In this document: positions 1 through 53,100 of the stretch, piece after piece
Layout of the letters: every line of letters begins with the position of its first letter
Position numbering within the stretch: the first letter of the stretch is position 1
Assembly (NCBI GenBank): GCA_964036195.1
Contig: OZ038456.1
Span: 20,164,104 to 20,228,103 of the forward strand
DNA length: 64,000 nt
Direction: 5' to 3'
Source: Sphaerolaimus hirsutus
Taxonomy: Eukaryota; Nematoda; Chromadorea; Monhysterida; Sphaerolaimidae
Notes under the pieces: model-generated
The model's database searches: none
What the model was told of the DNA's origin: nothing
Seen by the model: the letters and a program-made list of their open reading frames with translations, nothing else
Made by a program: the position numbers and the translations under genes

Positions 1-1877
1 GTGACGCGCTGCGCATAAAATTACCGGAACGGAAGCCGCTGGTAAAATTGTTTTTGAAAGGCAGTGCAAGGGCCATTTTCAACACCCGATACAGAGAATT
101 GCGTGACCTGAACTACAAGGATATGATGCAGGCGTTGGAAAAGTTCTATGAAAATCCAAATGATAAGCATCATGCTCAGAGAGAGATTTTCGAGACGCGA
201 CAGGGCGCAGATGAGTCGGTACTGGAATGGGCGGTACGTTTGGAAAAATTGATAAAATGTGCCTATCCAGGCATGGGTCATGAAAAACGAGGCGACACAT
301 GCATGATAAAATTCCATGGAGGACTGAGGAATGAAATTCGATGCAATGTACCTGTCACGGCTTCTATCACATGGAAAGAAATGGTTGACAACGCGCGTGC
401 GCAGGAGAGCTTTCTGGAAGCAGAACAGAGCCAGAACAAGGGAGAAAAATCCAAACAGGATGTGGTTGCCAGCGCGACCGACAAGGTGATGGACCGGTTG
501 ATGGCTTTAAACATGCCCACCATGGCTGGACTGCCGTCCCAGGCCGACAAGACGTTAGAGACAATGGAACAGAAAATGACTGAGAGTGTTGCCAAATTTG
601 ACTCTGTGCACCAAGAGATAGCGAAGAAATTAGCGCAACTGGGCGCGTTGGAAGGTAAACTTTTGGGACTGAATAGGGACCCCCCTAAATTGCCCCCACG
701 TAAATTTGACAAAGGATGTTGGGAATGTGGCTCTGAAGAGCACATCAGATATGAGTGTCCCAAACTCACCCCCGAACAAAGGGAACAGTACTTTAAAAGG
801 AGCCGCGGCGGCGGAGCATCCAGAGGAAATGGACGCGGGCGCGGCGGAAGACAACGTGGTGGCTATCAGAGAAATGACCAAGCCCAAGCGATGCAGCCAG
901 GTATGATGCCCATGCAATATGCATATCCACAGTGGCAACCAGCTCAGCCGATGCCTGTGCAGCCAGCGCAGACGGTACAGAGGGCTGGTGACATGAACAT
1001 GCAACCGCAGATGATGGCATATCAAACGCCGCCAGCCAACTGGATGACTATGGGACCGGATGGGCGCATACAACAATACAACATGCAACCGGTACAGGTA
1101 AGTAACCCCCACGTAGAGTCACTGAACCCCACGCAAGTGACCAGTACGACCGGAATAACCATGCGGGTGCGCGAAGATGACCGCTGCATGATGATACGTC
1201 CCGTTAATAAGTTAATTCCTGTGATGCAAGGTTTGGAATTAGAAGCAGAGGAACCTGAAGAACTGGTTCCAGAGCCACCCGAGGAACCGCAGCGCACTGC
1301 GGGAATGCATGTGCTTGCGCAAGAGCGTGAATTCTGGATCAAGCCATGGGCATACATGCGAACCGAAAAAGGTTATTTGTTTCGAACCACCTGGTTGGCC
1401 TTTTTACACAGGATCGGAATGCATGACTTGAGAGAAACGGACTGTACGCTGTGGCCTAATTGCCCTGCAGATGACCACTCGGACACGCTGACTGAGGTGC
1501 CCTTGGACGTGCTCATGAATATCAGTTTGTACCCCTTTCTGTATGCCACGCCGGCTGCGCTGCCGCCGCGCACGGGATCCAGCAACCAAATAGATAGGTA
1601 TATGGGGTTTTTGTCCACTGAGGAAGGGGTGCGCCCCGCGCCACGCGCGTACTCAGAACCCCCCTATATGCCCCAGGTCGCACAGTCACTGTTTTTTGTA
1701 TTGGCAGTTGGGTTAATTATAATGGGATTAGCCTTATTGCCAGGCGCGAGCGCAACTACCATGCCCTCGTTCCCCTTGTTATGTAGCGACTTGACAGACC
1801 ACTACGATCTATACACGTACCCCCCTTTGCCAAATTGCACAGCTATCGTAGACACCACGGCGTCATTAGAAAGTTGA
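1..1877 (+). CDS. gag: Gag polyprotein (5' partial) running into the envelope N-terminus
   Basis: The frame is open from base 3 with no start codon, so the N-terminus lies outside the window. It holds a helical capsid-like region, then one CCHC zinc knuckle (CWECGSEEHIRYEC, 717-758). A Gly/Arg-rich basic stretch (about 798-875) suited to RNA binding follows, then a Gln/Met/Pro-rich segment and an acidic Glu/Pro patch near 1245-1290. At about 1687-1740 a hydrophobic run ending in ASA looks like an internal signal sequence. The last ~35 codons, with two cysteines, match the start of the envelope domain in the BEL element of this window. Envelope therefore begins in the gag frame, and the frame closes at 1875-1877 inside that domain. 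Confidence 0.8.
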   Translation, partial: DALRIKLPERKPLVKLFLKGSARAIFNTRYRELRDLNYKDMMQALEKFYENPNDKHHAQREIFETRQGADESVLEWAVRLEKLIKCAYPGMGHEKRGDTCMIKFHGGLRNEIRCNVPVTASITWKEMVDNARAQESFLEAEQSQNKGEKSKQDVVASATDKVMDRLMALNMPTMAGLPSQADKTLETMEQKMTESVAKFDSVHQEIAKKLAQLGALEGKLLGLNRDPPKLPPRKFDKGCWECGSEEHIRYECPKLTPEQREQYFKRSRGGGASRGNGRGRGGRQRGGYQRNDQAQAMQPGMMPMQYAYPQWQPAQPMPVQPAQTVQRAGDMNMQPQMMAYQTPPANWMTMGPDGRIQQYNMQPVQVSNPHVESLNPTQVTSTTGITMRVREDDRCMMIRPVNKLIPVMQGLELEAEEPEELVPEPPEEPQRTAGMHVLAQEREFWIKPWAYMRTEKGYLFRTTWLAFLHRIGMHDLRETDCTLWPNCPADDHSDTLTEVPLDVLMNISLYPFLYATPAALPPRTGSSNQIDRYMGFLSTEEGVRPAPRAYSEPPYMPQVAQSLFFVLAVGLIIMGLALLPGASATTMPSFPLLCSDLTDHYDLYTYPPLPNCTAIVDTTASLES

Positions 1878-4405
1878 CGTTGACAATTTACAAGCGAAAT
1901 ATGGTAGAATATCGTGCGGCAGCTCACAGGTGTGTGGCCTCTACCAGAACTGCAAGGACGTATCAGAACTTTTGGGGCGATGTCACGCTGGAAAAGTTTG
2001 ATTCCAACCCTCGGTCAGTGGGCGCAGCCGAATGTGAAGGCATGATTAAATACCACAAATGCAATGATGGGCCCATGACACCTGTGAATGACCTGGACAA
2101 CGCATGGGACACTCAATACCCCACCAATGTTAGCTATTCAGGGCATGGACTGTATTGTTGCAAATGGGTGATTGAAACTACACCCCACTGCGGGCTGTTT
2201 CGAGGGGATATACGAATGAGATATGGAGCCAGTACCATGCAAAGTACGCTGGGTGAGGTTAGCAAGTGCAATTATGAAATGGGTGCATGCACGCTGGAGG
2301 ATGGTAGCCAAGTAACATGGAAACCGAACTTGAAGGCAGAATGTCCATACGAAAAATGGCGTGAAATGCATGGACGCATTAGACAGGATATCTGGCTAGC
2401 CGATGATCACACGCTATCACTGTCTTTCAGAGCACATGAAGAGGTTGAATCATGCGGCATCAAATTATGGAAATCAGATCAGGATATTGTAGTGGCGCCA
2501 TTTGAAAAAGCAGTGACTCGAAGCATCAGACAAAAAAGAGCGCAAGGTCGACCCACGTTAGGGATAGTGAGCGCAGGACAATTGGCAGCGAGCATGCAGG
2601 CCGTGTATGAAACTGCAGAACAGACCATGCGTGCACAGGCAGTGGCTACTTGCAAGAACGTGCAGCACTTCCAAGAATTTGTACGTTTGGCTATGAGCGA
2701 ACATGCAACTACGACAGCCCGCTGGTACATGAATGATAATGAAATAATTGCTCAACCCGCACCGGACGGATTTTTGGTTCATAAATGTTTTGCGGTCAAG
2801 ACCTACGAGATCATGAAAGAGGAAAAGTCCCCAGAATGTTATGAAACAGTACCTGTACAAGTCCGTGTGCATGGGCAGAATGTAACATTGCACATGAACA
2901 GGCTGACGAATATTTTGCACTTTCAAGCGATTCCAGGGTCGTGCACAAATGCACATAACCGTGTGGTAATGTTAAATGGACAGTGGTACAGATACCTACC
3001 GAAGGTGGGCGGTTTGGAGCATTTACCCATGTATAACACACACAGTTTCCCGCAGAAATGGCAACAGGAAAAGGTTAAGGATGTGCACCATCAGATTTTT
3101 GCCGCCACGACCATGTACAATTTGTCAGAATTATTGCCGACGACCACGCTAAATGACGTATGGCATGCATATTCAATTGTGCGGCAAATTACGCAGGGGG
3201 CGGAGCCGAAGGTGGAATCACACATGCAAAGGCATCGAACCCTGGCAAAATCGGTATTGGCGCTGGGATGGTGGGATTTTGACACCTGGCGCACCTGGTT
3301 GCAAGTATGGATTTACCTGATATGTGTGTTAGTTACTATGCAATACTTACTAGCCGCGCTCATGGCTGCAGCGCCGGAAATGGCCGTGACCTTGGTGAAC
3401 CGGGCAAAGGAAAAAATCAAAAACCGATCAAAGAAAGAAGAAAAGTCAAATATGATCGTCGAACTGGTTGAGGACCGCCCTAGCGAACAGGTAAAGGTAC
3501 AAACGGTAATTAACCCGTGTGTGGGAATGCCAAGTGGCATGCCCACACTCACGGGCGCGCGTCGTTTTCCCGCTATACAATACAGTATCAACAGAAAATG
3601 CGACTTGGAGGAAGAATCTGTGTGCATGATTACATTCTCGTTGGAAGAGAGGGACAACATACACCAGGTAGCCAATCGGTGTGAAGAAATTGTGCATGTA
3701 TATTACAGTCCGTCCATTACCATAACCATCGATGGGAGAGAATATCAAAGGTCCCTGCTGGACACCGGCGCCATGCGCTCATTGTGCAACAGAGACGTGT
3801 TGATGCGACAAAGGGAAAAAGCTACCAAGCATGATGAGGTATCACCTATTGGAGCCCTCAGGTGTGCAGCGGATTCGAAACTTTTGGTATTGGGACAGAT
3901 GGAAATACCTGTAACGATGGGAAACCACACTTTCGGGATTGTGTTTCAGGCGGTGAATGGGCTAGCTGGTGAAATTTTAATTGGCGCAGACGTATTGCGG
4001 CATATGGTAGTGGATTTACCTGCAAGGGAACTACGAATTCCCACGGCTAACGCGATAATTCCCTTTGATAAGCCCGACCCAGAAGTTCAGCAGCGCAGAA
4101 TTTACGCTATTGTGAATGAAAAGATAGAAATTCTGGCTAGACATGAAGCGCTAGTAACTGCAAAATTATCTGCTCCTTTGGATGAAACATTATTCACTGT
4201 CATGGGATTGGACACGGTAGGCGAACGCTGTGGAGTTATGGCTGCTTCAGCGGCCTATGAAACCAGTGCCCCCGTGTTTCAGGTGAGATGTGCAAATGTG
4301 CGAAATCAGCCCGTAGTATTACAGGTAGGACAGCGCATTGCAGTGGTCGAGCCAGTGGACTGCGTGCTGAAGGTGAAACCTGGAGACCCCCCGCCAAATG
4401 GGTGA
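1835..4405 (+). CDS. Envelope-like glycoprotein fused to retroviral-type aspartic protease
   Basis: This frame continues the envelope domain left by the gag frame; no ATG is needed and the start given is only where the frame opens. The ectodomain is cysteine-rich, with FWG, a CC pair, a CxxxMGxC element and a later CYE motif. An RQKR furin-type site lies at 2528-2539, and one membrane span follows at about 3300-3390. A basic linker then leads to a retropepsin: LLDTGA catalytic loop near 3757-3774 and a GEILIGADVL flap/C-terminal motif near 3970-3999. The domain resembles the envelope of the BEL element here and, by my recollection of family features, chuvirus-type glycoproteins found in some BEL/Pao elements. 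Envelope before protease is an unusual order. The break near 1862-1877 separates it from its own N-terminus. Confidence 0.75.
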   Translation: MHSYRRHHGVIRKLTLTIYKRNMVEYRAAAHRCVASTRTARTYQNFWGDVTLEKFDSNPRSVGAAECEGMIKYHKCNDGPMTPVNDLDNAWDTQYPTNVSYSGHGLYCCKWVIETTPHCGLFRGDIRMRYGASTMQSTLGEVSKCNYEMGACTLEDGSQVTWKPNLKAECPYEKWREMHGRIRQDIWLADDHTLSLSFRAHEEVESCGIKLWKSDQDIVVAPFEKAVTRSIRQKRAQGRPTLGIVSAGQLAASMQAVYETAEQTMRAQAVATCKNVQHFQEFVRLAMSEHATTTARWYMNDNEIIAQPAPDGFLVHKCFAVKTYEIMKEEKSPECYETVPVQVRVHGQNVTLHMNRLTNILHFQAIPGSCTNAHNRVVMLNGQWYRYLPKVGGLEHLPMYNTHSFPQKWQQEKVKDVHHQIFAATTMYNLSELLPTTTLNDVWHAYSIVRQITQGAEPKVESHMQRHRTLAKSVLALGWWDFDTWRTWLQVWIYLICVLVTMQYLLAALMAAAPEMAVTLVNRAKEKIKNRSKKEEKSNMIVELVEDRPSEQVKVQTVINPCVGMPSGMPTLTGARRFPAIQYSINRKCDLEEESVCMITFSLEERDNIHQVANRCEEIVHVYYSPSITITIDGREYQRSLLDTGAMRSLCNRDVLMRQREKATKHDEVSPIGALRCAADSKLLVLGQMEIPVTMGNHTFGIVFQAVNGLAGEILIGADVLRHMVVDLPARELRIPTANAIIPFDKPDPEVQQRRIYAIVNEKIEILARHEALVTAKLSAPLDETLFTVMGLDTVGERCGVMAASAAYETSAPVFQVRCANVRNQPVVLQVGQRIAVVEPVDCVLKVKPGDPPPNG

Positions 4406-6128
4406 AGCAGTGTTATGACAGAGACGTGTGTCGGCAAGTTCAAGCGACTGAACCTCCCCCCAAAGTAGCTGAAGACAAATTAGGGCCCCCACTACAAGTT
4501 GTGTGCCCAGATGGACACGTAATGGAATTTACAGTACCAGAAACTTTGACGGACGGACGAAGGGAGGAACTGAAAAAGGTGATTTTGCAATATAAAGAAG
4601 CTTTTGCTCGACACAAGTATGACATCGGCTACAGTGAATTAGTGGACTACCGGTTGCAACTAGTGGACAAAAAACCAATTGCCTGCAGGATGTACCGATT
4701 GAGTCTGGATGATCAGCAATACTTAGAAAATCATTTGAGATGCCTCATTGAGCATGACATAGTGGAACCCAGTACGAGCCCGTATTGCGCCCCCACGCTG
4801 GTGGTATCCAAACCGGATGGATCAAAGCGGATGGTAATTGATTACAGACGCCTGAACGCTGTTTTGCACGCTCCCCAATTCCCATTACCCCGCTTAGATG
4901 AAACAGTCAAATCTTTATGCAGCTGCAAGTATTTTTAGCAGTGCTGACATAAATCAAGCTTTCTATAACATTGCTTTGCATCCAGATGATCGACACATTA
5001 CGTCATTTAGAAATGTGTTTGGGCAATTTCAACTGAAACGTTTACCAATGGGATTTAAATGCTCTCCTAGTTTAGCGCAACGTTGTTTCGAATTAGCCAT
5101 GGCTGGATTAATACATCGAAATGTGTTATTATACATTGACGATTTACTAATTTACAGTGCAACATGGGACACCCATTTATACGACATAGGGCAAGTATTG
5201 GAAAGGTTAATTAAAAATAATTTCAAAATTAGTCCAAAAAAGTGTTTTTTTCGCACGCGTCACAGCCGTACGTTTTTTGGGATTTATGATTGGCCGCGAC
5301 GGCGTGTGCGTACCGGATGATAAACGGCACATAATTCAGGACTGGCCAGTGCCCACTACCGTAAAAGAGGTTAAGGGTTTTCTAGGAGCTATAGGTTTTT
5401 TTAGACGCATGATTCACAGATGTGCAGAACTGGCCGTGCCCCTGTCAAATCTCACACCTACGGGACCAAGGGAAAATTACAACAGTGACACCCCAGTGGA
5501 TTTGACATCGAAACCCAAGGCGTTGGAAGCTTTTCATAAACTCAAGGAAGCGTTGTTAGGAAGCCCGTGTTTGCAGTTTCCCGATCACAAGCGTATGTTT
5601 ATAATTATTACAGACGCCTCTAAAATCGCTGTTGCAGGCGTGTTAGCACAACGAGCAGAGGATGAAAAAATACTACATGCATGTGCATTTTACAGCCGGA
5701 AGTTAGGTGCAACCCAAAGCAAGTGGCCAGCAATTTCACTGGAAGCGTGTGCGATTTATGAAAGTATACGAAATTGGCATTGTTATCTGGCGGGACGACC
5801 CTTTGAAGTCTGGACCGACGCCAAGAGTATATCATGGGTAAAGAATCCCAATTTAGAGACCACCCCGCACGCCATGCTACATAAGTTCGCTTTAGCAATT
5901 ACACCATATCAAATCACGTTCAAGCATTTGAGGGGAATAAGCAATGAATTAGCAGATGCATTATCTAGAAGACAAGACGCGCCAGTGGTATTCGACGAGA
6001 AAAAGGACCTGGATGAGGCTTTTGAGCAGTTTGCACAAGTTACGTGCCGTGAAATCGCTATCCCGCACGATAAGCAGGTTACGGTAGCTGCGGCGAGCAG
6101 AGCAGCGTGCCAGCCAATCAGCGAGTGA
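4288..6128 (+). pseudogene. pol: Ty3/Gypsy-type reverse transcriptase and RNase H, two frame breaks
   Basis: Three successive frames give a recognisable pol. 4288-4938 carries the RT fingers (PSTSPYCAP, VIDYRRLN). About 4930-5250 carries SSADINQAFY, LPMGFKCSP and the catalytic YIDD. About 5250-6128 has the FLGF motif, connection and RNase H, with TDAS, a glutamate helix (SLEACAIYES) and a final ADALSRR. The frame changes fall in or beside runs of T at about 4931-4935 and 5245-5251, so sequencing indels are as likely as real mutations. The shift from the protease frame at about 4288-4405 is -1, as in many pro-pol junctions. The ORF stops about 60 codons after RNase H, where integrase would be expected. 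Confidence 0.85.
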
Positions 6129-6209
6129 GGCGGCGTAAACGAGGAGGCGGAGTTACTGCGACCAATCAGCGACCAGACGCGCGGGCGAAAAGAGGCGGAG
6201 TCACCTGGG
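6114..6209 (+). promoter_or_regulatory. Two tandem 48-bp units, each with a CCAAT box and a GC-rich box
   Basis: CCAATCAGCGA occurs at 6114 and 6162, and GAGGCGGAGT at 6144 and 6192, both pairs exactly 48 bp apart. The block covers the last codons of pol and ends 46 bp before the ATG at 6255. CCAAT plus GGCGG pairs are typical of TATA-less RNA polymerase II promoters (NF-Y and Sp1-like sites). Promoter function for the downstream ORFs is inference. Confidence 0.45.
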
Positions 6210-6254
6210 CTGCGAGAGCGGCAGCGGAATGCGGAAGCGCCTGGAACTGGAACA

Positions 6255-7468
6255 ATGGCTGGTGGTTCAGGAGCCGGAAATGAAGTTGCTCCGGGTTTAA
6301 CGAGTGTAGCCAAGCGCAGTACAATCATGGCGCTACCTCCCATGACTCATGGCCCATCAAACTCAAAGAAACAAATACGCATGGTGCCTGCGGCGGTGGA
6401 ACCATTCCCCCGCGACAACTTTACCGCGCGCAGCAGATGCAAAACGGGCCGGAAATCTACCCCAGCAGAGGGAAATTTGAAGGTTGGGTAGACCGAGTGT
6501 ACATTGACACGAGCGCAGATGGGCATGTTGAGTATCAATGCCATGTGAGAATTTCTGAGCAAACGATGGCGATACTCAGTGAAAACGAGCAGTGGGTGAA
6601 TGCGGATGAGGCATATCCGTATTTTTATTACTCAAATAAGCGAGCCAAGGCGGCTAGAGACAAAAGGACCACCCAGTTGGTGGATTTGTGCGCAAGAATT
6701 CAGAAACAGCACCCCTCGATGTTTTTGCCCCTGGTGCGTCACGGCATGCGTTTTTCGGCGACCGCGATTGCACAGAAAATAGAAAACCCGAGATACTGGG
6801 AGTTCACCGGTGTTACGATCTGGGGCAACCAGACAAAATGCCCCTTGAATATTGCCGCCCCGATTGTAGTGAGTATGCAGGGCACAAGGCGCATCACTCA
6901 AGCGGCGCGTACGTTGACACGCGGCGACACTTCCGGTTACCAGCCGTACACAAGCGACTGGAAAACAGCGCGGCTGCGAGCGGCCTTCACGCCTTCAAAT
7001 TACAAGAACCTGGAACCGCTGGGCGCGGCGGAGCGAGGCGATGCAGGGCCGGAAAAGTTGGTCATTTTACACCGCGAATATGTGAGTGACCCCAGAGTGG
7101 AAACTTTGAGCGCTGGGCAGTTGGGACTGGCCCATGTCGAGTATCACAACCTGAACGACTTGGACGTGTTTGGTGACAAATTTTACGGCCATGCATACAG
7201 GCTGCAGATCGCCACGGCCGAGGACATCAGCACAACGGGCGTTCAGCCAGACACAGAAAACCGAGACAACATGGACGTATTTTTGAGGTACAAAATGAGT
7301 ATTTTAGCAGCGGCCCACTGCTACAACGAGTCATTTTTGCGGTTTCAGGGCGAAACGCGCAACGGATGTGTGCGCACATGTGTTCTGGGAGCACACGCCG
7401 CAAGGCACTGCATGCAACATTATGGTGCGCCGCCCGGACCCAGAGGAATTACAAGCGGACACTTTTGA
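6255..7468 (+). CDS. Unrecognised ORF upstream of the helicase
   Basis: An ATG at 6255 opens a Gly/Pro-rich start that stops at 6491. In another frame an ATG at 6437 opens 343 codons to 7468. The two frames overlap and probably form one protein broken by a frameshift near 6440-6480. The 343-residue part is soluble-looking, with aromatic patches (YPYFYYSNK), no membrane span, no HHCC finger and no DDE triad, so it is not a visible integrase. Its 3' end overlaps the helicase frame by about 47-100 bases in a different register, so ORF and helicase may be one protein joined by a programmed shift or separated by an indel. I do not recognise the family. It could be an N-terminal accessory domain of the helicase. 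Confidence 0.55.
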
Positions 7469-10277
7469 GGGACCAGAAGAGCAGCGCGTTCGTTTACTGG
7501 AGCAGGTGAATACGCAGACACAGCTGCTGAACCAGGCGACGCCCATGTCAGTGTTGAGTTTGGTGCAGGCCCGACCAGACGAAGACAAACCAGCTGCGGG
7601 CAGCCCCAATTTGTCAGTGAGAATTACCAGTGTGGAATCAGAGCCAACCACTACAATGCTGCGTGCGAAATTGGACATGGCGGCGTCGCAATCAGCACTG
7701 CCCCGTACCCTGGAGAGTGGAAGGTACATGGTGCGCGGCTCAAACGACTCGCCCAATTATGACCGAACCATGCGGTCACTGCAGGCCGCCCTGAACAAAG
7801 CGCCGGTCGGCTGGGTGCCAAAAGTGGTTCAGGGGTCAAAAGTACTCACCCTGGAGGCGCAAATCCAATTAGCTGTGATATTGAATTTGCGTCTGCTGGA
7901 TGACGAAACTGACTGGGCGCTAATTAGCCGCGAGGCTAATGAGCTGTACGAATCATTGTTCAGGGGAAAAAATGAACAAATGATTCAGGCCAAATTAGGT
8001 GAGTTTTTGCCACAACAAGGACAGGTAGAAGTTTTAGGAGCTGTGATCACCGCCGTGCGCATGCGCAAACCCCTTTTGATTATGTGTGACTCGCCTTTCG
8101 GGTCTGGGAAGATGACCACACAAAATCAACTGGCGTATGTGTGTTCGCGCGGCTATAATTACTACAACACGAGACCCAGGATACGCGCGGGCTCCGATTT
8201 GCCGTCTGACAAGCAGCCGAACGCCAAATACCATTCGACGCTCATCACGTGCACGGTCAACTCGGCGGCCGACGAAGGAGCGCGCAGGGCCCTGACCAAC
8301 TTGAATAAATTAGGGCAGCGGGACATTTTTGGGGCTTTGGAAGTTTGGCTGCGGGAACGCGCGAAATGGACCGCTATGGCTGACACGCCATTTTCTGAAA
8401 TGCAAAAACTGGAGGGTTTCGAAGAATTTTTGAAATTAAGAGCGGCATTTCCGGTGCGCGTTTTGAGCCCCATGTGGGAAAGTGATGCTACTTATAGCAC
8501 CACCCCCGCAACCCAATTACCAACCCTGCACACCCTAGCACAGCGAACCGGCCACAACATCGTCCGCCTCAGCCCCGAATGGACGGCAGCGCTGGAAAAG
8601 TACGACGGCGCCAAGAAGGACTACGAGCTGGTGGACGAGATTATCAACAACTGCACGGATGATGCCGTTATCCGTGCGCAGCTGACCGAACAAGTGCCCT
8701 TTCACACCGCCGACGATGGGGACAAGCAGCCATTTGACGACTTCGAGGAAGGCGTGGCGGGCGCCCGGGCTGGAGCGGCTAGTTTAGCTGACCAAGTGTT
8801 CTGGGGTAAAGTGCTGCGTAGGGCGCTGTCTAAATATGTCAGGGCTACGGTCAGGCTGCACCGTGTGTTTTTGGAAGTGATGCAGCCCGGTCAAATCCAT
8901 GTCACTTTAGACTCCGCCCACGACGCCCGTAGAAAAAGTGTGACTGCGTGTGCGGTAATTATTGACGAAGCGTCATTGGCATCTGACGCTGCAGTAATTA
9001 GCGTGGTTCAGGCGGCCCAGCTCCCAGTGAACGGCATGCTACTTCTATTTGGAGACAGTAAACAATTGACACGTATGATTCGCGTGCAAGACTGGGTGGA
9101 GCCCGTCCTGAAACCCGACCCCACCCTCATTGATAGGCTCACACAGTACCAATTATGTCCCGTGGTTCACTTGGAAACAGTGTTCCGCGGGCATCGCCAG
9201 CTCATTCAGGCTAACTCTGTGGCGGCGTACAATGGACTGCTACGCGCCTACAACGACACGGCAGTGCACGGCGCCACCATGTTGCCCTCGCCTGGCGACT
9301 TCGAGGACGGCGTCATGCTGTCATCGACTTTGGTGCACCAGGGCTGCGAATCGAAAGAGGGCATGTCAATTATCAACAAGAAAGAACTGCGCATCATCTT
9401 GCACCTGTACGACTACTTCGTAGCCACTGTGAAGGAAGATCCCACCCTACCCTGGGCGGATCTCACAGATCCCGCTAGTTTGCTAATTGTGTGCTTTTAT
9501 GCGGCGCAGGCGCGCACCCTAATCAGTCGACTAGTAGCCCATACAGAACACGACGCGGCCTACTGGGCCACCCGCGTAATTACTGCCGACAAAGCTCAGG
9601 CCCGGGAAGCGGAAGTGGTCATCATTTCCTGCGTGCGCGGCAGCCCGCCAACCGACTCCGCCCAACTGGATGCTGATCCCAAGAAGGCGTACGGTAGAGT
9701 TGGATTTGTAGCAGAGTTGCCCCGGGGAAATGTAGCCACCTCCCGCGCCAAATGTGTACGCATAGTGGTGGCCAACGCCGAGACCATGTTGTGGTCAACT
9801 TTTTTCCACCGGTTTCTGACGGTCGAGCACATGGCCGACCGAATTTACTCTTACGAATCGGGCCAAATCTGGGGAAACGTGCTGGGATTCTGGCCACCGG
9901 AGTGGCGCCCGCGGGCCGACTTGAAAGAACTAGTCGGACCGGATAGATACCCGGCCCTTGAAGAAGAACTGAAGGCAGAAGTTCTATCTGATATTGAAAC
10001 CGCCTCCTCAGGCTCTGACTCCTCCGCGGACGCGCGGGAGGAGGGTGTACCGGTGGTGGAAGAGGTGGTGCCCGTTGTTGAGCCAGTTTACCGCCCTAAT
10101 GAAGATTATTCCCCCATTAGCAACGACATGGCGGCCATGGCATTGCAGAACGCCGCCGAGCCCCCCTCACCACAGCCCGAGCACCACGACGCGGTCGAGG
10201 CCATCCCGCTGCCACCGGAGGACGCTCCAGCGCAACAGGTAGAACACCACATGGAAAATGGTAATTGTGAAAATTGA
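7422..10277 (+). CDS. UPF1/DNA2-type superfamily 1 helicase
   Basis: 951 residues from the ATG at 7422; the frame opens 18 codons earlier without an ATG. The SF1 motifs appear in order: P-loop SPFGSGKMTT (about residue 228), Walker B IIDEAS (about 513), motif III LLFGDSKQL (about 544), an R-bearing ETVFRGH (about 586), motif V ADKAQAREAEVVIIS (about 725) and motif VI NVATSRAKCVRIVV (about 770). This arrangement is typical of UPF1/IGHMBP2/ZNFX1-like RNA/DNA helicases rather than the Pif1-type helicases of Helitrons. The P-loop has Met where Thr/Ser is usual (GKM), which could weaken Mg-ATP binding. The C-terminal ~120 residues are acidic, Pro-rich and low in complexity. No RT, nuclease or zinc-binding domain is fused. 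A retroelement-linked helicase might unwind RNA or evade RNA decay, but that is inference. Confidence 0.8.
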   Translation: MVRRPDPEELQADTFEGPEEQRVRLLEQVNTQTQLLNQATPMSVLSLVQARPDEDKPAAGSPNLSVRITSVESEPTTTMLRAKLDMAASQSALPRTLESGRYMVRGSNDSPNYDRTMRSLQAALNKAPVGWVPKVVQGSKVLTLEAQIQLAVILNLRLLDDETDWALISREANELYESLFRGKNEQMIQAKLGEFLPQQGQVEVLGAVITAVRMRKPLLIMCDSPFGSGKMTTQNQLAYVCSRGYNYYNTRPRIRAGSDLPSDKQPNAKYHSTLITCTVNSAADEGARRALTNLNKLGQRDIFGALEVWLRERAKWTAMADTPFSEMQKLEGFEEFLKLRAAFPVRVLSPMWESDATYSTTPATQLPTLHTLAQRTGHNIVRLSPEWTAALEKYDGAKKDYELVDEIINNCTDDAVIRAQLTEQVPFHTADDGDKQPFDDFEEGVAGARAGAASLADQVFWGKVLRRALSKYVRATVRLHRVFLEVMQPGQIHVTLDSAHDARRKSVTACAVIIDEASLASDAAVISVVQAAQLPVNGMLLLFGDSKQLTRMIRVQDWVEPVLKPDPTLIDRLTQYQLCPVVHLETVFRGHRQLIQANSVAAYNGLLRAYNDTAVHGATMLPSPGDFEDGVMLSSTLVHQGCESKEGMSIINKKELRIILHLYDYFVATVKEDPTLPWADLTDPASLLIVCFYAAQARTLISRLVAHTEHDAAYWATRVITADKAQAREAEVVIISCVRGSPPTDSAQLDADPKKAYGRVGFVAELPRGNVATSRAKCVRIVVANAETMLWSTFFHRFLTVEHMADRIYSYESGQIWGNVLGFWPPEWRPRADLKELVGPDRYPALEEELKAEVLSDIETASSGSDSSADAREEGVPVVEEVVPVVEPVYRPNEDYSPISNDMAAMALQNAAEPPSPQPEHHDAVEAIPLPPEDAPAQQVEHHMENGNCEN

Positions 10278-12504
10278 TACGAGACAATTTTTAGTCAGAA
10301 TCAATTATAAAGTTTCAAGGTGCGGTAATTTATGCACAACTTTTGTCATCAGGAGAAACAGACAACTTTGTAACAAAAAATGAGCGACTAAAAACATACT
10401 TGTTAATATTCCAGGAAAATAATCAGGAAATCTTGTTGACGATCAATTTTCACATGCACAAACTGCGACACGTTGGTCGAGCAGGTAACTTGAATGTTGA
10501 TCCCAAACTGCCCGTCCAGCAGTGGCACAATGCTGCGAAGTGGCCCAATTAGAGTTCTATTTAATTAGTCTTTATAATGTAAAAAGGAAACTTTTTTCTC
10601 ACATCGAGCCCTGTGCGGGAACCAGAATTTCGAAGTTTCGGGCACAAAAAGCTGGCACAGCAGAAAGCTGACGCCATAGTTCGAATGAAGACGAGCCATA
10701 TTTGCACCCCCAGGGCATGTGACTGCCACGGCCATCCACCGAAAAATGCAGAGAAGGCATGATTTTCGAATGACCGAAAACGGTGCAAAACACTTTTTCT
10801 GAACATGTCGTTTTTAGCCCGGAGGTAAAAAATTAATGGCTGGTGGGATTGTAGGTGGAAATATGGCTAGCCAATCATGCATAAAAACGTAACGACAATT
10901 TTGTGCAGACACTCCGACGACTCGAGGACGACCGTGTGTGACCGAATGACGGCCCGCGGTGCACAGGGAAGTCACAGTGAACGTGCGGTTTGCTGTGCAC
11001 TGCAAATCCGCCAACGAGGCCGCAGCCCCAGGACGGTACGCCCGAATGGACACTACTGCGGCCATGATTTTATTAAGTATTTTTTCTTTTCCGTTAATTA
11101 CGTAACTACTTCCTGTATGAATTTAATTGTGTCATTCCCTGTTTTAATTAATTAAACTAATTAAGTTACCCGCATTTTAAGTTAATCAAGTGATTACTTT
11201 CATTTTTCAAATGCATTTTCTGATATGTACTTTCGAATGTTATAATTTTTAGGTTTCTATCAAGTTTACATATTTGGTCAAAAGGGTGCAGTGTCTGGGA
11301 ATGGGTTAGAAAAGCTTTAAAGTTTCCTGTTAAGCTAAAAGGTGTCGACTCTGTTAAACACCTAGACGCCCCGATAGATAACATTCAGAAAATTCCCCGA
11401 CCAAGTGCATTTTTACTTAGGACTAGGTAATGGGTGGAAAAGTGGCAAACGGCAATTATTGTCGACATGCGACTGCAAGACACATGCAGAGCACAGTTTA
11501 CAGTGAAGAGCACAGCAGTGCCAATTAATTATTCCCATCACCCAGGGTGATTGTTGAACTCGCAAGTGCTAGTGTCTTTGTAGTGTGTGTTCATGCCCGA
11601 AGTTCCAACCCTTACCCGGCAATGCAATAACCTTGAACTAACCCCCGCAAATGAGCGTTCTTTCTGTGGCCTTGGTCGGGCACGCTAAAAAATATTTTTC
11701 ACCTAAAGGGGCGCAGGTTGATAACACGTGTCACACCACCTGCTCTAAATTGTACCGTAAACTCTGAATAAAAACCCAGTTTATGACACTCACCTCTGAG
11801 ATAATCTGTATTTTAATTGCGTCATTTTTAATTACAGTTACTTCACGTTTGCATCCTTTTTATTACTTTCCCGCATTCAACTAATTTTCCCGTGCCTTGT
11901 ATGCTATGTTAATTGTTTTTACAGTGATCATTAATTTTGCCTTGTAATCCTCTAATTACGGTTAATTGTTGTGTCTCAGATTTAGTATTCATTTCTATTA
12001 TGGTAGACTTTTGGTGATTATAAAACGCGCTGATTTTACATTTTTTCACCCACTAGAGGCTATACGACTCACTTGAGCTATTGTGAAATTGACTCTGATT
12101 ATATTGCTAAATAAAGTTCCCGTGAATCCAACTTGGTCCCCCTGAAGCATACTAACTGCTTGAATTTTAATTTGAATTTTATTAATTACGGCTTTATTTT
12201 ATTTACGGCTTATTAACAGTTACTCGAAGTAAACCGCCGGCTGCAGTTACGAAAGGGATTGGTAAGTTGCCGTGTCCGTCCTCGGGAACTTGTCAGGACC
12301 CCAAGGGGTACTGGCGCTGTTCCTAATTTGCGTGTAAAATCCCCGTACCATAAAAACAAACATTTGTTTAATTACGCACGCAATTAAAAGTGCAAAGGGA
12401 CCGGAATTTACAATTGTCTGCCGCGGTAACTCGACGAGTGGCGTATTTTTGTGGTAAAAACGGAAACTAGTAAAATTAGTAAAAACGTAAAATATCTGAC
12501 ACAA
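10278..12504. other. Non-coding AT-rich tract after the helicase, possible 3' LTR inside
   Basis: No ORF here has convincing codon structure. The sequence switches sharply from GC-rich coding to AT-rich. AATAAA signals occur near 11767 and at 12110. Part of this tract could be the 3' LTR of the retroelement, but its partner lies outside the window and boundaries cannot be set. Confidence 0.4.
12019..12115 (+). promoter_or_regulatory. TATA box and polyadenylation signal spaced as in an LTR
   Basis: TATAAAA at 12019-12025 is followed 85 bases later by AATAAA at 12110-12115, the layout expected when U3 promoter and R-region poly(A) signal sit in one LTR. It lies 1.7 kb past the helicase stop. 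A chance pairing in AT-rich DNA is possible. Confidence 0.35.
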
Positions 12505-12839
12505 GCACCAGCGTCAAGCACCAGCGCCAGGCACCAGCGCTGTGGCGCATTTCTATCACGACGCAGTAGATTTGTGCAGCATTTGCATGTTCACCCAAAA
12601 TATCAATGTTTATGAAAAAGTAAATACCTTTTGACAAGTATGGACTGTTATGACGCCTATTCAACTCCAGAGTTGATATTGGGTATTTACTTTTACTCTG
12701 AAATCCAGCGCACTGAGTAAATACCCATGGGTACAATAGTTCAATTGTACCAACCCATTTACGTTGTATTTTTTCACAAGTACTGGGTACTTTTGAGTAT
12801 TTCAGAAAATTATATGAAAATGTGCGAATAGTACAAAAG
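12505..12839. repeat. Dispersed repeat, copy 1 (matches 62547-62878)
   Basis: Begins with an AGCACCAGCGCC-type array and continues with sequence including GGTACAATAGTTCAATTGTACC. It lines up base by base with 62547-62878 with scattered substitutions and one short indel near 12633. No coding content. Confidence 0.8.
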
Positions 12840-46849: not shown

Positions 46850-48119
46850 TGTGCTGACCGTGGCAAAATGGATGGATAAAGAAATACAGAGAATTGATAA
46901 TTAGGTTCATATTTGCGCATTTACTCATTTGTACCAAATTATATTTCCTGCACTATATTATTTACCCATGGAGAATATTCAATTAGGAAAGTGTTCTATA
47001 AATTATTGATAGGTTTATTTGGAAAGTTTAGGTTAAAAGGTCAAATAAGTTATTATTAGGTGTATTAATATGAAATTAGGCTCATTCAACTCGCCGTAAT
47101 TTTCTGATCATTATTATATATACATTTACATGGTTTACTAGCAATTTGGGAAAGTCAAAAGTTGTAAATATTTATGTGCTATCTGTTTACTTAGGCCAGC
47201 GTCCTAATAGAGAAATAATGCCCTGTGCGTAACTAGCATTTACTGTACGTATTTACGAAGCCCTTCGCGTAGGCATAATTGTTATAACCCTGCTCATAAG
47301 TTATATTATCTTTACTTTGATATTAATTATAATACCCTGTTCAAGCTGAATATTATAAACCCTGCTCAATTACAATACCCATTTACTCCAAATAAGTCCC
47401 AATTTGTTAATTATGAAATATACGTTTTCAGGAAGTGATTATTATTGTTGTGTTGAATATACCATGTTCTATTTACGTCATTAGGAACATTTGCACCACT
47501 AATTATAATTTCCTAACCCTATTATATTAGTTCCAATGTGCGTCAATGTTTTCTGACAAATTGAACCAAATTAGTAAATCGGCCGAGTTTGCCGACTTCG
47601 CGCCTCGTAAGATTAATAGTTTTTCTATTAACCCAATTTGTACCTGGTATTTCTTTACCATAAGTATTTGAATATATGCCCGCGCAGTCTGAGGCAACTG
47701 TTTCGGCTAGATATGTTTATTTGTTGCATTTATGACTTATTTGTGTATTTGTATTGGGAAATTACTGTAGCTGTTTTTCTATACATGATTTCCGTGTCTT
47801 AGCTACTTTGGAAGTTTTTACTGGAGTCTGCGGACCCCAAGCTACTGAACGAAAATAAGCTAGCGATAGAAACTTCGAATAGGAAGCTCGCTAGGCTTTG
47901 CGCTTTTGTAACACGCTGTATCTGATCGAAATAAAGTACCTGAAACAATTCGAACCCCCCTTTTCAACACACAACTACGAAATAAACTCAACTTGGCTGA
48001 CGACAAGTGGACGTTCGGCTACAACGGGAAATCAACCACTCTAAAGGCCGTTTCTCACTACGGTCTTGGAATTGCCGGATTCGGTGGAAGAAGACGCTGA
48101 CTTCGGTGGCTTCATCACA
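46850..48119 (+). repeat. BEL/Pao 5' LTR
   Basis: Starts TGTGCTGACCGTGG, ends GGCTTCATCACA. AATAAA at 47930-47935 is the likely poly(A) signal. A weak AATATAT at 47671 is the only TATA-like candidate. Confidence 0.96.
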
Positions 48120-48136
48120 TGGCGCAGCGAGCAGGG
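48120..48136 (+). promoter_or_regulatory. Primer-binding site, probably for tRNA-Ser
   Basis: TGGCGCAGCGAGCAGGG starts right after the LTR. Its complement is a tRNA 3' end ...CTGCTCGCTGC-G-CCA. An acceptor stem opening GCAGCGA with discriminator G fits tRNA-Ser. Assignment is from recalled tRNA features. Confidence 0.7.
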
Positions 48137-50159
48137 TGATTGCATGACATTGTGCTATCACCAAGCCGGAACGGACATTGTGCGGCAGTTGGCAGAACTT
48201 CAAAATTCCTGCTGAACATCAATTTGGCCTTGGCTGAGAGTTGGCTGTTGATTTGCAGACAGCATTGTGCCAAAGTCACGGCACTCCTGTCTACATCCTG
48301 GGAGCGGTTCTACGCTCACGCGCGGAGGACACTGGAGTTCTGACAAGCCTGTCAGGATTTCAGGCAGCTTTCACCAGTGTTCTGGCAAGGTGCTAGACGC
48401 TGGGCGGCACCGGCATTTGACAAGGAGTCATTGTCGGACGGTGGTCAAACTTTCGCTGGACGCTCCTGGACATCCGGACGCCAGTGACCGCTCGCACGTC
48501 CTTCCTATGCCAAGGGAGGGTGACCTGATGGAGACAGGATCGCCACAAAGCCACGCTAGTCAAAGGGCTGTTTTTGGGCATTCGCGGAGGTCCCTCGCTC
48601 CACTGGGTAAGAGTGGACTCATACCTCGGAAGTGCAAAAGTAGGGGTATCAGTGTACAAAGGGCTGTAGCTGACAGAGGGCTGTAGCTGACGGAGAGTGG
48701 ATTTGAAAACCAAGTATTAGGATACTTGGTAGCGTGTAGGGGCTTTGCGGAGCTCCCATCAAATATACACGCTGTGCCTGCTCGGTACCATCAGATCAGA
48801 CAGCACAAAAGTAGGGTTGGGACGATATGACTTTTCGATATCGATATTCGATATTCGATATTTTTTTCTGAAACTCGATATTCGATATCGATACGATATG
48901 GACCCTCGATATTCGATATCGATATTCGATATGAAAATATGCTCGATATTCGATATCGATATTTCGATATTTTCGATATTTCGATATTTTCATGCAGAGG
49001 GGCATATTGCATTTCCATTTGGTCACAAACATGTTTGATCATCTTTTTAAATGAGTCTCACAACAGTAAAAATGAGAGGATGAAATATGAACAGGATGAA
49101 TCTGATTTTATCAGGTGAAAAATTATTCAGCAGACATTTACATTTCACAGGTGTGGCTGGTTTTTTACATTTTTAAAGGTTGTTGTTTAAAAAGACTGTC
49201 AGAATTTTTTAGCCACATTTTCGTGAAATTGTTTCCTTGCGATGCGATGCAGTTTCCTTTGTGAATAGCTTGTATTTTGTTAGGGTGTGTACACATTACC
49301 CTTCAGATCCTACTGTTGATAGCTCAATGTAAAAATGGCATGCTTTTGATATGGGATATTACTTTGTGCATTCAAAGGCGTGCACATGTTATGGCTGCAG
49401 CGTCGACTTTTTGTTTGCTTCACCCATTTTTATGGGATAAAAAAAGGTCAAAAAGAATATCAGAATATCGAAAAATATCGAAAAAATGGTCGATATTCGA
49501 TATCGATATTCGATATTTTTTCAAAATTTTCGATATCGATATTCGATATTCGATATGAAAAAATGGTCGATATCCGATATTCGATATTCGATACGATATA
49601 TCGTCCCAACCCTACACAAAAGTGCCAGAAATTCTGCATTGCACAGGCGCAATCGCAGAGCAGTGTACAGAAACACTGCCCAGAATCAGAAAGTGCACCA
49701 GAGTGCACAGAAACGTGTCACAGGTGGCACGGCAAGCGCAGCACTGCGCACAGCGGCACAGGAGCCGCTCAGGAAAGCAAGTGGCCGGCGTGGTCACGGG
49801 GCACACAGGCGTGCCAGAAAGAGCGCCAGAGCGCTCAGAAAGAGTGTGTACGGACCCTCTTTGGGCGCACACTGCTGGGCAAATAAATTGTTTATTGTCC
49901 AGGTGGATTTGACCGGTGTGTTGAAGTCAACGCGTGTAAACAATCACGTCAGGGGCTTTAGGAACACACCAGGTGCCAGTGCAGTAAAGGTCAATGCGTG
50001 GAAACACATCAGGGGCCTGTAGGACTGCATTGGTATTGTGCGTGGCACAACAAATCCGTGGTGCACAGAGCACTGCACAGAAAGACGCAGAGAAGCGTCC
50101 CAAGCGTCACAGGCGACGCACTATAAAGAGAACAGTGAAGGAAAAATTCGTCAGCAAAA
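48137..50159 (+). other. BEL/Pao 5' leader
   Basis: Untranslated region of about 2 kb, of which 803 bp plus one duplication is a later MITE (48812-49614). Short ORFs here lack support. Confidence 0.7.
48812..49614. mobile_element. hAT-like MITE with TCGATATTCGATA arrays, inside the BEL leader
   Basis: Termini TAGGGTTGGGACGATAT and ATATCGTCCCAACCCTA, exact duplication CACAAAAG (48804-48811, 49615-49622). Subterminal arrays of TCGATATTCGATATCGATA lie at both ends, with a unique ~450-bp core. Confidence 0.94.
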
Positions 50160-53100
50160 ATGGTTTCGCCAACGGGTCACATCAGAAAGACCCTGGGGCC
50201 AGCAAAGCACAGGGTGGAAAGTAGATTGGCAAGAGAATTTGCCAAATATGACCTGGAACTATTTGCGGAAGCATCAAAGGATGATAAGAGAACAGAGATG
50301 AGAAGGGTGATTGCATCTATCAAACAGGAGGGTGCAAAATTGGAAAGTGCAATGAATGCAGTGAGAACTCAATTTGACGCATGGAGGGATATCGTCAAGG
50401 ACATTGACGAACCCGACCAGATGGAACAAGAACAGAAGATATACCAAGATTCATATGAGGAATATGCAAACATGTCAGACTTGGTGACACAGAAAATTGC
50501 AGCCATGAATGTATACATTGAAGAGTTGCAAGACATGATCCAGCAACTGAGCGGAAGTACTATGTATGAAGTCAACACAGCATTCATACAGCAGATGGCT
50601 GCACAGATGGCTTTGACAGCTCAGGAAGCTGCTCCGGGGGCCAGTTCAACCAATGCAACCACAGCAAAGAGCGTCAAATTACAGAAACTGGAAGTGGAAC
50701 AGTTTACTGGGGAAATTGTCAAATTTCGATCATGGTGGCAAATGTTCGAATCCCACATCCACAATCGGACAGATTTGGAGGACATTTCCAAGTTCTCATA
50801 CTTGAGGAGCTTGCTGAAAGGTTCAGCATTTGGCATGATCAGTGGATTGAGTGTGACCGCAGAAAATTATGCACCCGCAATTGCAATGCTCAAGAAGAGA
50901 TATGACCAGCCAGTTGTGGTCAGAAACACGCTGATGAGTAATATCATGAAGCTGCGACAGGCCAGGAATACCTGTCAGGATATGAGAATTTTGTTTGATG
51001 CAATTGAAAGGCTGCTCCAGCAGTTGGAGTCACTGGGCGAATCAGTGGAACATCCAATGCTGTTGAGCCAGCTGCAACAGAAAGTGCCACCCGAGGTTCT
51101 CAGAGAAATCCAGAAGGAACAGGGAACTGAGGAAGCCTTGATGGTGGAAAATTTCAGAAAGCTGTTTGGCAAGCAGCTAGCGCTCAGTGAGGCTGTACAG
51201 CACGCACAGCAAACTGAGGCACCAGTTCAGCAATCCCGCCAGGGATTCGGGAATAATCCACGCGCACAGCAATTCAATAATCGATTCCAAGGCAATGGGA
51301 ATCGATTCAGAGGGCCAGAGAATCCTAGGACCAGCACAGGGAGCATGTCTGTGATCCAGAATGGTCAGAGTGCACCACAGGCTGGATTCATGAATCCTGG
51401 GAGGCCGTGTGTGTTCTGCAATGACACACAGCAATTACACTTTAATGATAAGTGTCCAAAGTTCAAAACTGCCAGAGAAAGGAGAGTGGTTTTGTCAAAG
51501 GCAGAGCGATGCCTGAGATGCCTGCAGAAAGGGCATTACATGAATCAATGTCAATTTACGAGAAGTTGCTTTTATTGCAAGTCCAATAGGCACCACACTG
51601 CGGTGTGCCCAGAGAAATTTGGTGATAATGGCAATGGAAACGCTGGACGACAAATTCCAGCATTCAAAGCAAATGGTCAACAGAATGGCCAGCAATCAGC
51701 AAACAATGGCAGAAAGTCTGTGCCGACGGCCGGTCGACTAGCACAGAGCCAACAGAGAAAGGCCACAGTGAATTGTGTCACTGTGGAGGAAGCTGGACCA
51801 GAAGTGGTAGAGACAGAAACCATATCCAGCACAGTGGTTACAGAACCAAATACAAAGCAACAGAATACGTCAGTGAACCTGTCAGTAAACAGGAATATGT
51901 CAATGCTGATGACAGCCAGAACCGTGATTGAAACTTCAGAAATGGATACAGAGATGGAGCCTGAACAGCCACCACTACAGATTCAAGCGTTCCTGGACAC
52001 AGGATCCCAGGGAACGTACATGTCAGAGAAAGTGGCCAAGAAACTCAATTTGAAGAGTACAGGTGAACACCACATCCAGGTGTACACATTCGGAAATGAA
52101 AAGCCGCATTATAAAGTAGTACAGCAAGTGGAATTCAGAATGCGGCTCAGAAATGGCCAGAAAGTTGATATGGTGGCTGATGTGGTCCCGACGTTGACCA
52201 CAGAACAAGTCAAATTGCCTGTGTCAGAACAGGACGAAAAGTACCTGCAGAAGTACTTCCCGGATGAGAGTTACTTTGCAGACAGAATTCCCAAAGAAAA
52301 AGGGACAGAGTGCAAGTTCAAGCCAGACATTATAGTAGGCTTGAATTATTTCTGGGACTTAATGTCCAGAAACACCAGCACCACCAGACTTCTGTCAGGA
52401 TTGTATGTCATTCCATCAAAATTGGGATTGCTGATGGGAGGTGGGCAGCTGACGAGCAACAGAAATCAATGGACCACGGATGGCGCATATCCGGTGGTGG
52501 TCAACACAATTGTGCATCAAATTCAGAGAGAAAAGTGGTACGAGGAAGCACCGTTGTCAATTGCTCCTGTACCGAATGTCAAAGATATGGACAGACTGGA
52601 TACCATTGGCATAATGGACCAGCCAGACCTCGTCGAGGACGATGAAGCCATCAAGCAATTCAATGAGAGTGTACAGAGAAACCCAGATGGACGGTACTCT
52701 GTAAAGTTCATGTACAAACCAAATTTGCATGAACTCCCAGATAACAAAGCAATGGCGTTCAAGAGGTTCAGGTACCTCACCAACAGGCTCAAGAGAGACC
52801 CAGAATTACTGGAGAAAATTCAGGCAATCATGAAAGCACAAGAGGAGCAAGGAGTAATTGAGAAAGTACAAGAGGATATTAGGGATGGTAGAAAGTTCCA
52901 TATATTGCCTCATCAACCAGTGATAACGCCAGAGAAAACTACCACAAAGGTCAGAGAGGTATATGATGCCTCAGCGAAACCACCAGGCATGCCAAGCTTG
53001 AATGAGTGCATGTACCGCGGTCCAGTGATACTACCACAGTTGGTAGGGATGCTGATGCGATTCAGGTTGCATGGAATTGCCCTGGTTGCAGACATAGAGA

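What the first reader, a model, noticed from the sequence alone, without database searches (positions are those of the whole stretch)
1..10277. Retroelement with envelope between Gag and protease, Ty3-type RT, no visible integrase, and a linked helicase
Retroviral and errantivirus-type envelopes are normally 3' of pol. Here the envelope signal sequence is in the gag frame, the ectodomain and membrane span precede the protease in one ORF, and RT/RNase H follow. After RNase H the usual integrase is replaced by an unknown ORF and an SF1 helicase. If this is one unit it is an unusual retroelement type; I know of no described element with this order.
Basis: partly seen in the sequence, partly recalled or inferred. 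Interest (0 to 1): 0.92.

Follow-up and report, generated by a model that had tools for sequence, protein, structure and literature searches.

The report
Giant retrovirus-like element carrying a helicase
The stretch is one damaged copy of a large, recently active retrovirus-like element of an invertebrate that places its envelope between capsid and enzymes, reads its reverse transcriptase across a frameshift and carries its own helicase gene; the integrase that seemed to be missing was only deleted from this copy.

Summary
The gene order is real and is one unit. The window copy is bounded by 1.65-kb LTRs (99.0% identical, TG..CA, 4-bp TSD); the 5' LTR lies outside the window. About 150 copies were scored (capped lists); 112 of 150 RT hits have the helicase at the same spacing. 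"No integrase" is a defect of this copy: 19 of 20 other copies examined carry one, and the "unknown ORF" plus helicase form one ORF2 elsewhere. Layout, about 17.6 kb: LTR - Gag-Env-PR-RT-RH-IN - X/UPF1-like helicase - LTR. Between subfamilies the parts tested (Gag, Env, PR, RH, X, helicase) are under purifying selection (dN/dS 0.01-0.15). New here: RT is split at motif A by an identical UUU-UAG-C stop with a +1 shift in 19 of 19 readable copies, apparently programmed frameshifting. Env in frame between gag and pol has a precedent, planarian Burro (PMC6431247); virus-type SF1 helicases occur in insect retrotransposons (PMC5563155, PMC6338049). Ten paper searches showed no element with a UPF1-like helicase ORF or an RT-internal shift. 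New variant of a known kind; splicing, topology, recoding and helicase role are inferred.

The parts
1..1877 (+). Gag frame, C-terminal part (Retrotrans_gag about 42-263, CCHC zinc knuckle about 714-764); Gag begins outside the window (L009 5787 onward)
1095..1103 (+). CAG|GTAAGT splice-donor-like site after NC, identical in 9 of 10 copies; another lies about 548 nt after the 5' LTR, outside the window
   Evidence: consensus match only, no RNA evidence
1689..1745 (+). Hydrophobic segment in the gag frame, proposed internal signal/anchor of Env
   Evidence: hydropathy 2.55; present in 9 of 9 other copies scanned
1835..4405 (+). Open frame with Env ectodomain, membrane span and protease; in one frame with Gag in other copies
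2234..3007 (+). Env core, PF24664 Monjiviricetes_fusion; furin-type RQKR at 2528-2539
3317..3373 (+). Env membrane span
3707..4018 (+). Retropepsin (DTGA)
   Evidence: weak Pfam matches below cut-off plus the DTGA motif
4288..4938 (+). Open frame with the N-terminal part of RT (frame 0), ending at the shared TAG
4933..4939 (+). TTT TAG C, proposed programmed +1 frameshift site inside RT
   Evidence: identical in 19 of 19 readable copies, window copy included
4898..5320 (+). RT C-terminal part in the +1 frame (RVT_1)
5277..6128 (+). RNase H (copy-specific frame break near 5300)
6347..6352 (+). Deletion junction: integrase and the start of ORF2 are missing in this copy
   Evidence: junction placed by eye
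6353..7468 (+). ORF2 N-terminal region X (no Pfam match), broken off from the helicase in this copy
7368..10277 (+). ORF2 UPF1-like SF1 helicase; motifs I 8091, Ia 8247, II 8961, III 9048, IV 9180, V 9597, VI 9729
   Evidence: motif assignment by eye
10850..12501 (+). 3' LTR (TG..CA); its 5' partner is L009 4085-5737, i.e. window -3415 to -1763
12502..12505 (+). Target-site duplication CAAG

Best explanation
It is a defective copy of a high-copy, recently active, envelope-bearing Ty3-type (metavirus-like) LTR element. Shown by sequence: LTR - [Gag-Env-PR-RT(N)] +1 [RT(C)-RH-IN] - [X-SF1 helicase] - LTR, with TG..CA LTRs and 4-bp TSDs, as integrase makes them. Inferred: the polyprotein threads the membrane twice, so Gag and PR-RT-RH-IN face the cytosol while the Env ectodomain enters the ER lumen, where furin cuts it; the element's protease frees the rest from the cytosolic side. 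Inferred: ribosomes that stop at UUU-UAG-C make Gag-Env-PR; those that slip +1 add RT-RH-IN, so this shift, not a gag/pol shift, sets the polymerase dose. Inferred: ORF2 is made from a spliced RNA (acceptor-like TTCTTACAG about 250 nt before its ATG; donor-like sites in gag). Inferred, least certain: the helicase acts in the producing cell on the element's own RNA. Genomic RNA whose translation stops kilobases before its end is the kind of RNA that UPF1-dependent decay recognises (established knowledge, recalled), and an element-coded UPF1-family enzyme could blunt that decay or silencing (my probability for this role about 0.4; help to reverse transcription about 0.3).
For: LTR pairs 97.2-99.9% identical in 10 of 10 copies, the window copy included (c3 over a part, as its 3' LTR runs into N), and 4-bp TSDs in 9 of 9 copies with both flanks readable. 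Helicase copies with RT upstream: 41 of 47, 39 of them at 3.99-4.07 kb; RT hits with an AAA_12 hit 2-15 kb downstream on the same strand: 118 of 150, 112 of them at 5.7-5.9 kb, opposite-strand control 2 of 150; 12 of 12 further RT copies have the helicase in place. 3' LTR after the helicase in 20 of 20 other copies examined. Integrase zinc domain 3.9e-15 and core 7e-10 in one copy put to Pfam. dN/dS between subfamilies (w or c2 against c5-c9): helicase 0.058-0.084, X 0.044-0.081, Env 0.029-0.040, Gag CA-NC 0.042-0.067, PR 0.055-0.057, RH 0.012-0.036. Frameshift: 19 of 19 readable copies identical, no earlier stop in frame 0 and none later in the +1 frame of the piece; 13 of 13 variable columns downstream are third positions of the +1 frame (five copies). 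Env: two membrane segments and a furin-type site in 9 of 9 other copies. ORF2 helicase: TIGR00376 IGHMBP2-family 1.7e-13; best solved-structure matches (3.5e-7) are chains titled 5'-3' RNA helicase-like protein.
Against: No RNA or protein data: splicing, frameshifting, topology and helicase activity are unproven. No RNA structure stands out after the shift site (z -0.2 to 0.8, simple shuffles). Upstream of the shift, two of the five variable columns are first positions of frame 0, not third. Of the window's own subfamily only the window copy was readable at the shift site (c2 was not). Three of nine Env pieces carry a stop, the window copy has several frame breaks and a degenerate Walker A, and two of eight helicases (c2, c6) have a changed DEAS motif, so many copies are defective. 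Region X has no family match and its single-sequence fold failed (pLDDT 30). Pairwise dS between subfamilies differs between regions (0.22-0.63), hinting at recombination. 32 of 150 RT hits had no AAA_12 hit in the capped list and 6 of 47 helicases no RT hit. dN/dS of RT(C) and IN was not computed.
Confidence: 0.78

Rival explanations
1. Chance junction: a Ty3-type element and a helicase gene or second element that merely lie side by side.
For: In the window copy alone there is no integrase, no 5' LTR inside the window and several frame breaks.
Against: LTRs and TSDs around the whole unit, near-constant spacing in the genome, helicase in 12 of 12 further RT copies.
Confidence: 0.02
2. An integrase-less element of a new kind (pararetrovirus- or recombinase-like).
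For: No integrase in the window copy.
Against: Integrase present in 19 of 20 other copies examined; TG..CA ends and 4-bp TSDs.
Confidence: 0.02
3. The frame change in RT is an old inactivating mutation; the family is non-autonomous and moved by RT supplied in trans.
For: All 19 readable copies share it; no stimulatory RNA structure seen.
Against: RH downstream of it stays under dN/dS 0.012-0.036 between subfamilies, and the site is in both subfamilies (window copy and main subfamily); downstream variation is confined to third positions of the +1 frame; UUU-UAG-C allows +1 re-pairing of the P-site tRNA on UUU.
Confidence: 0.12
4. The helicase works inside the particle or pre-integration complex, aiding reverse transcription of a 17.6-kb genome, rather than on RNA in the producing cell.
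For: Large genome; sequence relation to helicases titled 5'-3' RNA helicase-like; co-operation with reverse transcription is one role proposed for insect retrotransposon helicases in PMC6338049.
Against: ORF2 is separate from the Gag-Pol polyprotein, so nothing seen would package it (inference).
Confidence: 0.3
5. Env and Pol come from different spliced RNAs, and the long shared frame is only a genomic arrangement.
For: Conserved CAG|GTAAGT sites after NC and in the leader, a weaker donor-like site about 3.2 kb from the LTR start in 10 of 10 and an acceptor-like site before ORF2 in 7 of 7.
Against: None of the four best acceptor-like sites in each of four sequences scanned lies just before the protease; Gag, Env and PR share one open frame in other copies.
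Confidence: 0.25

Closest known systems
Burro giant Ty3/gypsy elements of planarians (PMC6431247; section 7 read)
   Same: LTR element with Gag, then an env-like region matching mononegavirus fusion glycoproteins, then PR-RT-RH-IN in one frame; multi-copy.
   Different: Burro exceeds 30 kb, has BIR, ankyrin, MATH, BCL2 and dUTPase-like domains and, in the section read, no SF1 helicase; ours is about 17.6 kb, splits RT by a +1 shift and has a helicase ORF after IN. Sequence homology to Burro was not tested.
Insect retrotransposons with virus-type SF1 helicases (PMC5563155 passages; PMC6338049 part 1 of 4)
   Same: SF1 helicase linked to a retrotransposon.
   Different: Those resemble plus-RNA-virus replicase helicases, mostly in LINEs, with two cases fused to Ty1/Copia RNase H or integrase parts; ours is UPF1/IGHMBP2-like, a separate ORF in a Ty3-type element, present in about 150 copies.
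Anakin BEL/Pao elements with chuvirus glycoprotein (PMC7642597, abstract and outline seen)
   Same: Glycoprotein related to those of chuviruses and their kin captured by an LTR element; a BEL/Pao element with such an Env lies in this window too (50160-58862).
   Different: BEL/Pao, not Ty3. In the window's own BEL element Env is at the 3' end; the order in Anakin was not read.
Errantiviruses / insect ERVs (PMC12992720 passages)
   Same: Envelope-bearing Metaviridae with a furin site in Env.
   Different: There Env is made from a spliced RNA (passages seen) and lies downstream of pol (recalled); here it precedes protease in the gag frame.
Ty1/Ty3 +1 frameshifting (PMC5009743 passages)
   Same: +1 ribosomal frameshifting in an LTR element.
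   Different: There the site lies near the 3' end of gag; here it is a stop codon inside RT.

Membership tests
Metaviridae (Ty3/gypsy) LTR elements | LTRs with TG..CA ends and 4-6 bp target-site duplications | tested here: met
   10 of 10 LTR pairs (one partial), TG..CA and 4-bp TSD in 9 of 9 readable
Metaviridae (Ty3/gypsy) LTR elements | Pol order PR-RT-RH-IN | tested here: met
   IN lost in the window copy and in one of 20 others
Metaviridae (Ty3/gypsy) LTR elements | Integrase C-terminal GPY/F module | tested here: inconclusive
   Stretch RFIGPYECID in several copies, RFIGLYECID in another; read by eye, no profile used
Metaviridae (Ty3/gypsy) LTR elements | RT falls within Ty3/gypsy in a tree | not tested
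   No reference set of retroelement RTs on hand; only Pfam RVT_1 and RT_RNaseH matches
Burro | Env in frame between gag and PR | tested here: met
Burro | BIR/ankyrin/BCL2 domains and dUTPase in the polyprotein | tested here: not met
   None in Pfam scans of the pieces put in
Burro | Sequence homology to Burro | not testable with these tools
   No Burro sequence was at hand in the collections used
Errantivirus | env downstream of pol as a separate ORF (position recalled) | tested here: not met
   Env precedes PR; a helicase ORF follows IN
Insect virus-type SF1H retrotransposons | Helicase of plus-RNA-virus type (PF01443) | tested here: not met
   PF01443 0.041, below cut-off; AAA_12 1.5e-24; IGHMBP2 family 1.7e-13
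UPF1-like SF1 helicases | AAA_12 domain and motifs I-VI | tested here: met
   motif assignment by eye; the full-family cut-off of TIGR00376 is not reached (49.9 against 348.9 bits)

The most novel reading that the evidence does not exclude
A distinct lineage of infectious metaviruses in which a single membrane-threading Gag-Env-Pol polyprotein fixes the Gag:Env ratio at one to one, polymerase dose is set by a +1 shift inside the RT domain itself, and a captured UPF1-family helicase shields its RNA from host decay or silencing.
Probability: 0.3. Interest if true: 0.88.

Novelty: new variant of a known kind. Interest (0 to 1): 0.7.

Why it matters
It suggests that Gag-Env-Pol order is not confined to planarian Burro, gives a family of about 150 similar copies in which a retroelement-coded UPF1-like helicase has been kept by selection, and points to a recoding site inside a reverse transcriptase. 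Each makes a direct question testable: how an envelope in the middle of a polyprotein is processed, whether retroelements disarm RNA decay with a relative of its enzyme, and how an RT split by a stop codon is made.

Tried and rejected
Rejected: chance junction of RT element and helicase; integrase-less or recombinase-type element; helicase of alphavirus-like type.

Full report
LABELS. w is the window copy; c2-c11 are rows 2-11 of the helicase list; d1-d10 are rows 12-17 and 19-22 of it. Labels only say which pieces were compared.

WHAT IS THERE. The window begins inside Gag. On the + strand follow, in order, Gag (Retrotrans_gag, CCHC), a hydrophobic segment still in the gag frame, an envelope ectodomain, a second membrane span, a retropepsin, RT, RNase H, an ORF without family match and an SF1 helicase.

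ONE UNIT. Fetching the sequence left of the window and both flanks of nine other copies (c2-c10) showed LTRs of about 1.65 kb outside everything: 5' LTR at L009 4085-5737 (window -3415 to -1763) and 3' LTR at window 10850-12501, 99.0% identical; the nine others 97.2-99.9%, c3 over a part only because its 3' LTR runs into N. Ends are TG..CA where both are readable. The 4-bp duplications CAAG, CACG, AATA, CTTG, AAAT, AAAC, GTTG, TGGA and CCGA flank 9 of the 9 copies with both flanks readable (read by eye from its printout). K2P between LTRs is 0.0092 for the window copy, 0.0143 for c2 and 0.0006-0.0036 for seven others (c3 left out), so the family was active recently; no host mutation rate is at hand to date it.

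COPIES. The helicase query scored 47 of 552 candidates, all 96-100% identical; the RT query scored 150 of 1504; AAA_12 scored 150 of 454, of which 148 look like the element and two (C65, C14), with stronger and partial matches, are probably host genes (my inference). These are capped lists, hence lower bounds. RT lies upstream of 41 of 47 helicases, 39 of them at 3.99-4.07 kb; the window copy, at 2.47 kb, is one of the two outliers because of its deletion. 118 of 150 RT hits have an AAA_12 hit downstream, 112 at 5.7-5.9 kb, against 2 on the opposite strand. Of the 109 RT hits without a helicase's list, 12 with long open frames were inspected, and 12 of 12 have the helicase at the expected place, one of them over 351 of 601 bases.

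INTEGRASE. In other copies RNase H runs on into a zinc-binding domain (3.9e-15) and a DDE core (7e-10; one copy put to Pfam). The RH-IN piece is open over about 766 codons in 9 of 10 copies (c2-c11; c2 has a frame break and lacks the C-terminal module), and IN is found in 9 of 10 further copies (d1-d10). The exception, d3, has late Gag sequence only about 1.1 kb before its helicase, so Env to IN are gone. The window copy is deleted from about 6347 into the start of ORF2. In 38 of 47 copies ORF2 is one frame of 1327-1338 codons, counted stop to stop, whose N-terminal part is the 'unknown ORF'. From the coordinates one other copy measures about 17.6 kb and the window copy about 15.9 kb.

SELECTION. 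NG86 dN/dS between the subfamily of w and c2 and the main subfamily (copies among c5-c9): helicase 0.058-0.084, X 0.044-0.081, Gag CA-NC 0.042-0.067, Gag N-terminal part 0.125-0.149, Env 0.029-0.040, PR 0.055-0.057, RH 0.012-0.036. Within the main subfamily the helicase gives 0.022-0.044. Between w and c2 the ratios are higher (0.09-0.26), as expected where decay after insertion weighs more. Helicase and envelope are thus kept about as strictly as the core genes tested; RT(C) and IN were not computed.

FRAMESHIFT INSIDE RT. All five copies first read share one frame change at the same codon, at what I take to be RT motif A: frame 0 ends ...CSCKYF-stop (TTT TAG C, window 4933-4939) and the +1 frame continues SSADINQAFYN. 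Of 20 copies tested, w included, 19 show it identically, with no earlier stop in frame 0 and none later in the +1 frame of the piece; the twentieth piece (L072, c2) ends within the site. In the 120 nt downstream, 13 of 13 variable columns among five copies are third positions of the +1 frame; in the 90 nt upstream, three of five are third and two are first positions of frame 0. Because RH beyond it is under strong selection, the simplest reading is programmed +1 frameshifting at a 'shifty stop'. No RNA structure stands out. The passages I saw of a review place the Ty shifts near the 3' end of gag and count pol in the +1 frame in 2 of 51 animal elements (PMC5009743). My one search aimed at frameshifts within RT listed no such element by title.

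ENVELOPE. PF24664 matches in w (6.7e-7) and in c9 (9.2e-8), both just above the curated cut-off. In 9 of 9 other copies there are two strong membrane segments and an RQKR furin-type site. Six of nine Env-PR pieces are open over their whole 1033 codons; c4, c5 and c8 carry a stop in Env, and c8 ends again at PR/RT. A BEL/Pao element in the same window has a related Env (26% over 177 aa, E 4e-12 in a two-sequence comparison), there at the 3' end of a single 2900-aa frame.

EXPRESSION SIGNALS. CAG|GTAAGT lies about 548 nt after the LTR in 10 of 10 copies and at window 1095-1103 in 9 of 10 (c7 has GTAAGC); a weaker CAG|GTGAGA lies about 3.2 kb from the LTR start in 10 of 10. TTCTTACAG lies about 250 nt before the ORF2 ATG in 7 of 7 copies, scoring above the 99th percentile of AGs in the neighbouring DNA; Env pieces also hold acceptor-like sites of similar score in some copies. 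The 548-nt leader has no ATG in 7 of 10 copies, and the gag frame has no ATG for its first 321 codons in 6 of the 7 copies that could be measured of 9 tried, although the N-terminal Gag region as a whole is under selection; non-AUG initiation is my inference. The splice scores are simple consensus scores of my own with recalled weights.

HOW IT PROBABLY WORKS. Integration by an ordinary integrase follows from the TG..CA ends, the 4-bp duplications and the integrase gene of other copies. The rest is inference: a membrane-threading polyprotein with Gag and Pol on the cytosolic and Env on the lumenal side; a recoding site within RT that sets the polymerase dose; ORF2 from spliced RNA; and a UPF1-family helicase that most likely acts on the element's RNA in the producing cell, with help to reverse transcription as the main rival.

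COMPARISON. Burro of planarians (PMC6431247, section 7 read) already has env in frame between gag and pol, called there the first such case. Insect retrotransposons with virus-type SF1 helicases are known (PMC5563155 passages; PMC6338049 part 1 of 4), including two Ty1/Copia fusions. Bdelloid LTR elements capture other extra ORFs (PMC5408684 passages), and Troyka, another LTR lineage, has no envelope (PMC12440569 parts 1-3 of 5). I saw no element with both features, none with a UPF1-like helicase ORF and none with an RT-internal shift in the searches; most papers listed were seen as titles and abstract starts only, and most subscription journals are absent from that library. Hence: a new variant of a known kind.

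CONDITION OF THE WINDOW COPY. Besides the integrase deletion it has frame breaks between Gag and Env (near 1860), between PR and RT (near 4400), near 5300 and within ORF2, and a degenerate Walker A motif. Copies with long open frames exist in the genome.

Noticed in passing
window 46850-59204: A BEL/Pao element with 300-nt direct repeats, 100% identical (46850 and 58905), and one 2900-aa Gag-Pol-Env frame; Env is Monjiviricetes-type (4.4e-15) and fused in frame after integrase.
   Followed up: partly
L052 (G000:C2:4418170-4420070): A copy with 3' LTR, Gag sequence and ORF2 but without Env-PR-RT-IN between them: an internal-deletion derivative retaining the helicase; its 5' LTR was not fetched.
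   Followed up: partly
G000:C9:20139326-20144939, minus strand: Another copy of the family in opposite orientation about 20 kb left of the window (RT and AAA_12 hits).
   Followed up: no
L009 5738-6285 and the same stretch in other copies: A 548-nt leader almost free of ATG (0 in 7 of 10 copies) inside the open gag frame, which has no in-frame ATG for 321 codons in 6 of 7 copies measured.
   Followed up: partly
helicase motif II, copies c2 and c6 (L002, L006): Two copies of different subfamilies carry the same DEAS to DKAS change, and several Env stops fall at Trp or Arg codons; this could reflect G-to-A / C-to-T decay (not counted).
   Followed up: no
pieces compared: dS between subfamilies differs by region (helicase 0.22-0.29, Env 0.57-0.63), hinting at recombination or gene conversion between copies.
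   Followed up: no
L099 (G000:C762, 14,754 bases): Mitochondrial contig; COX1 reads with TGA=Trp, AGA=Ser and ATA=Met (code 5), so the host is an invertebrate; species not named.
   Followed up: partly
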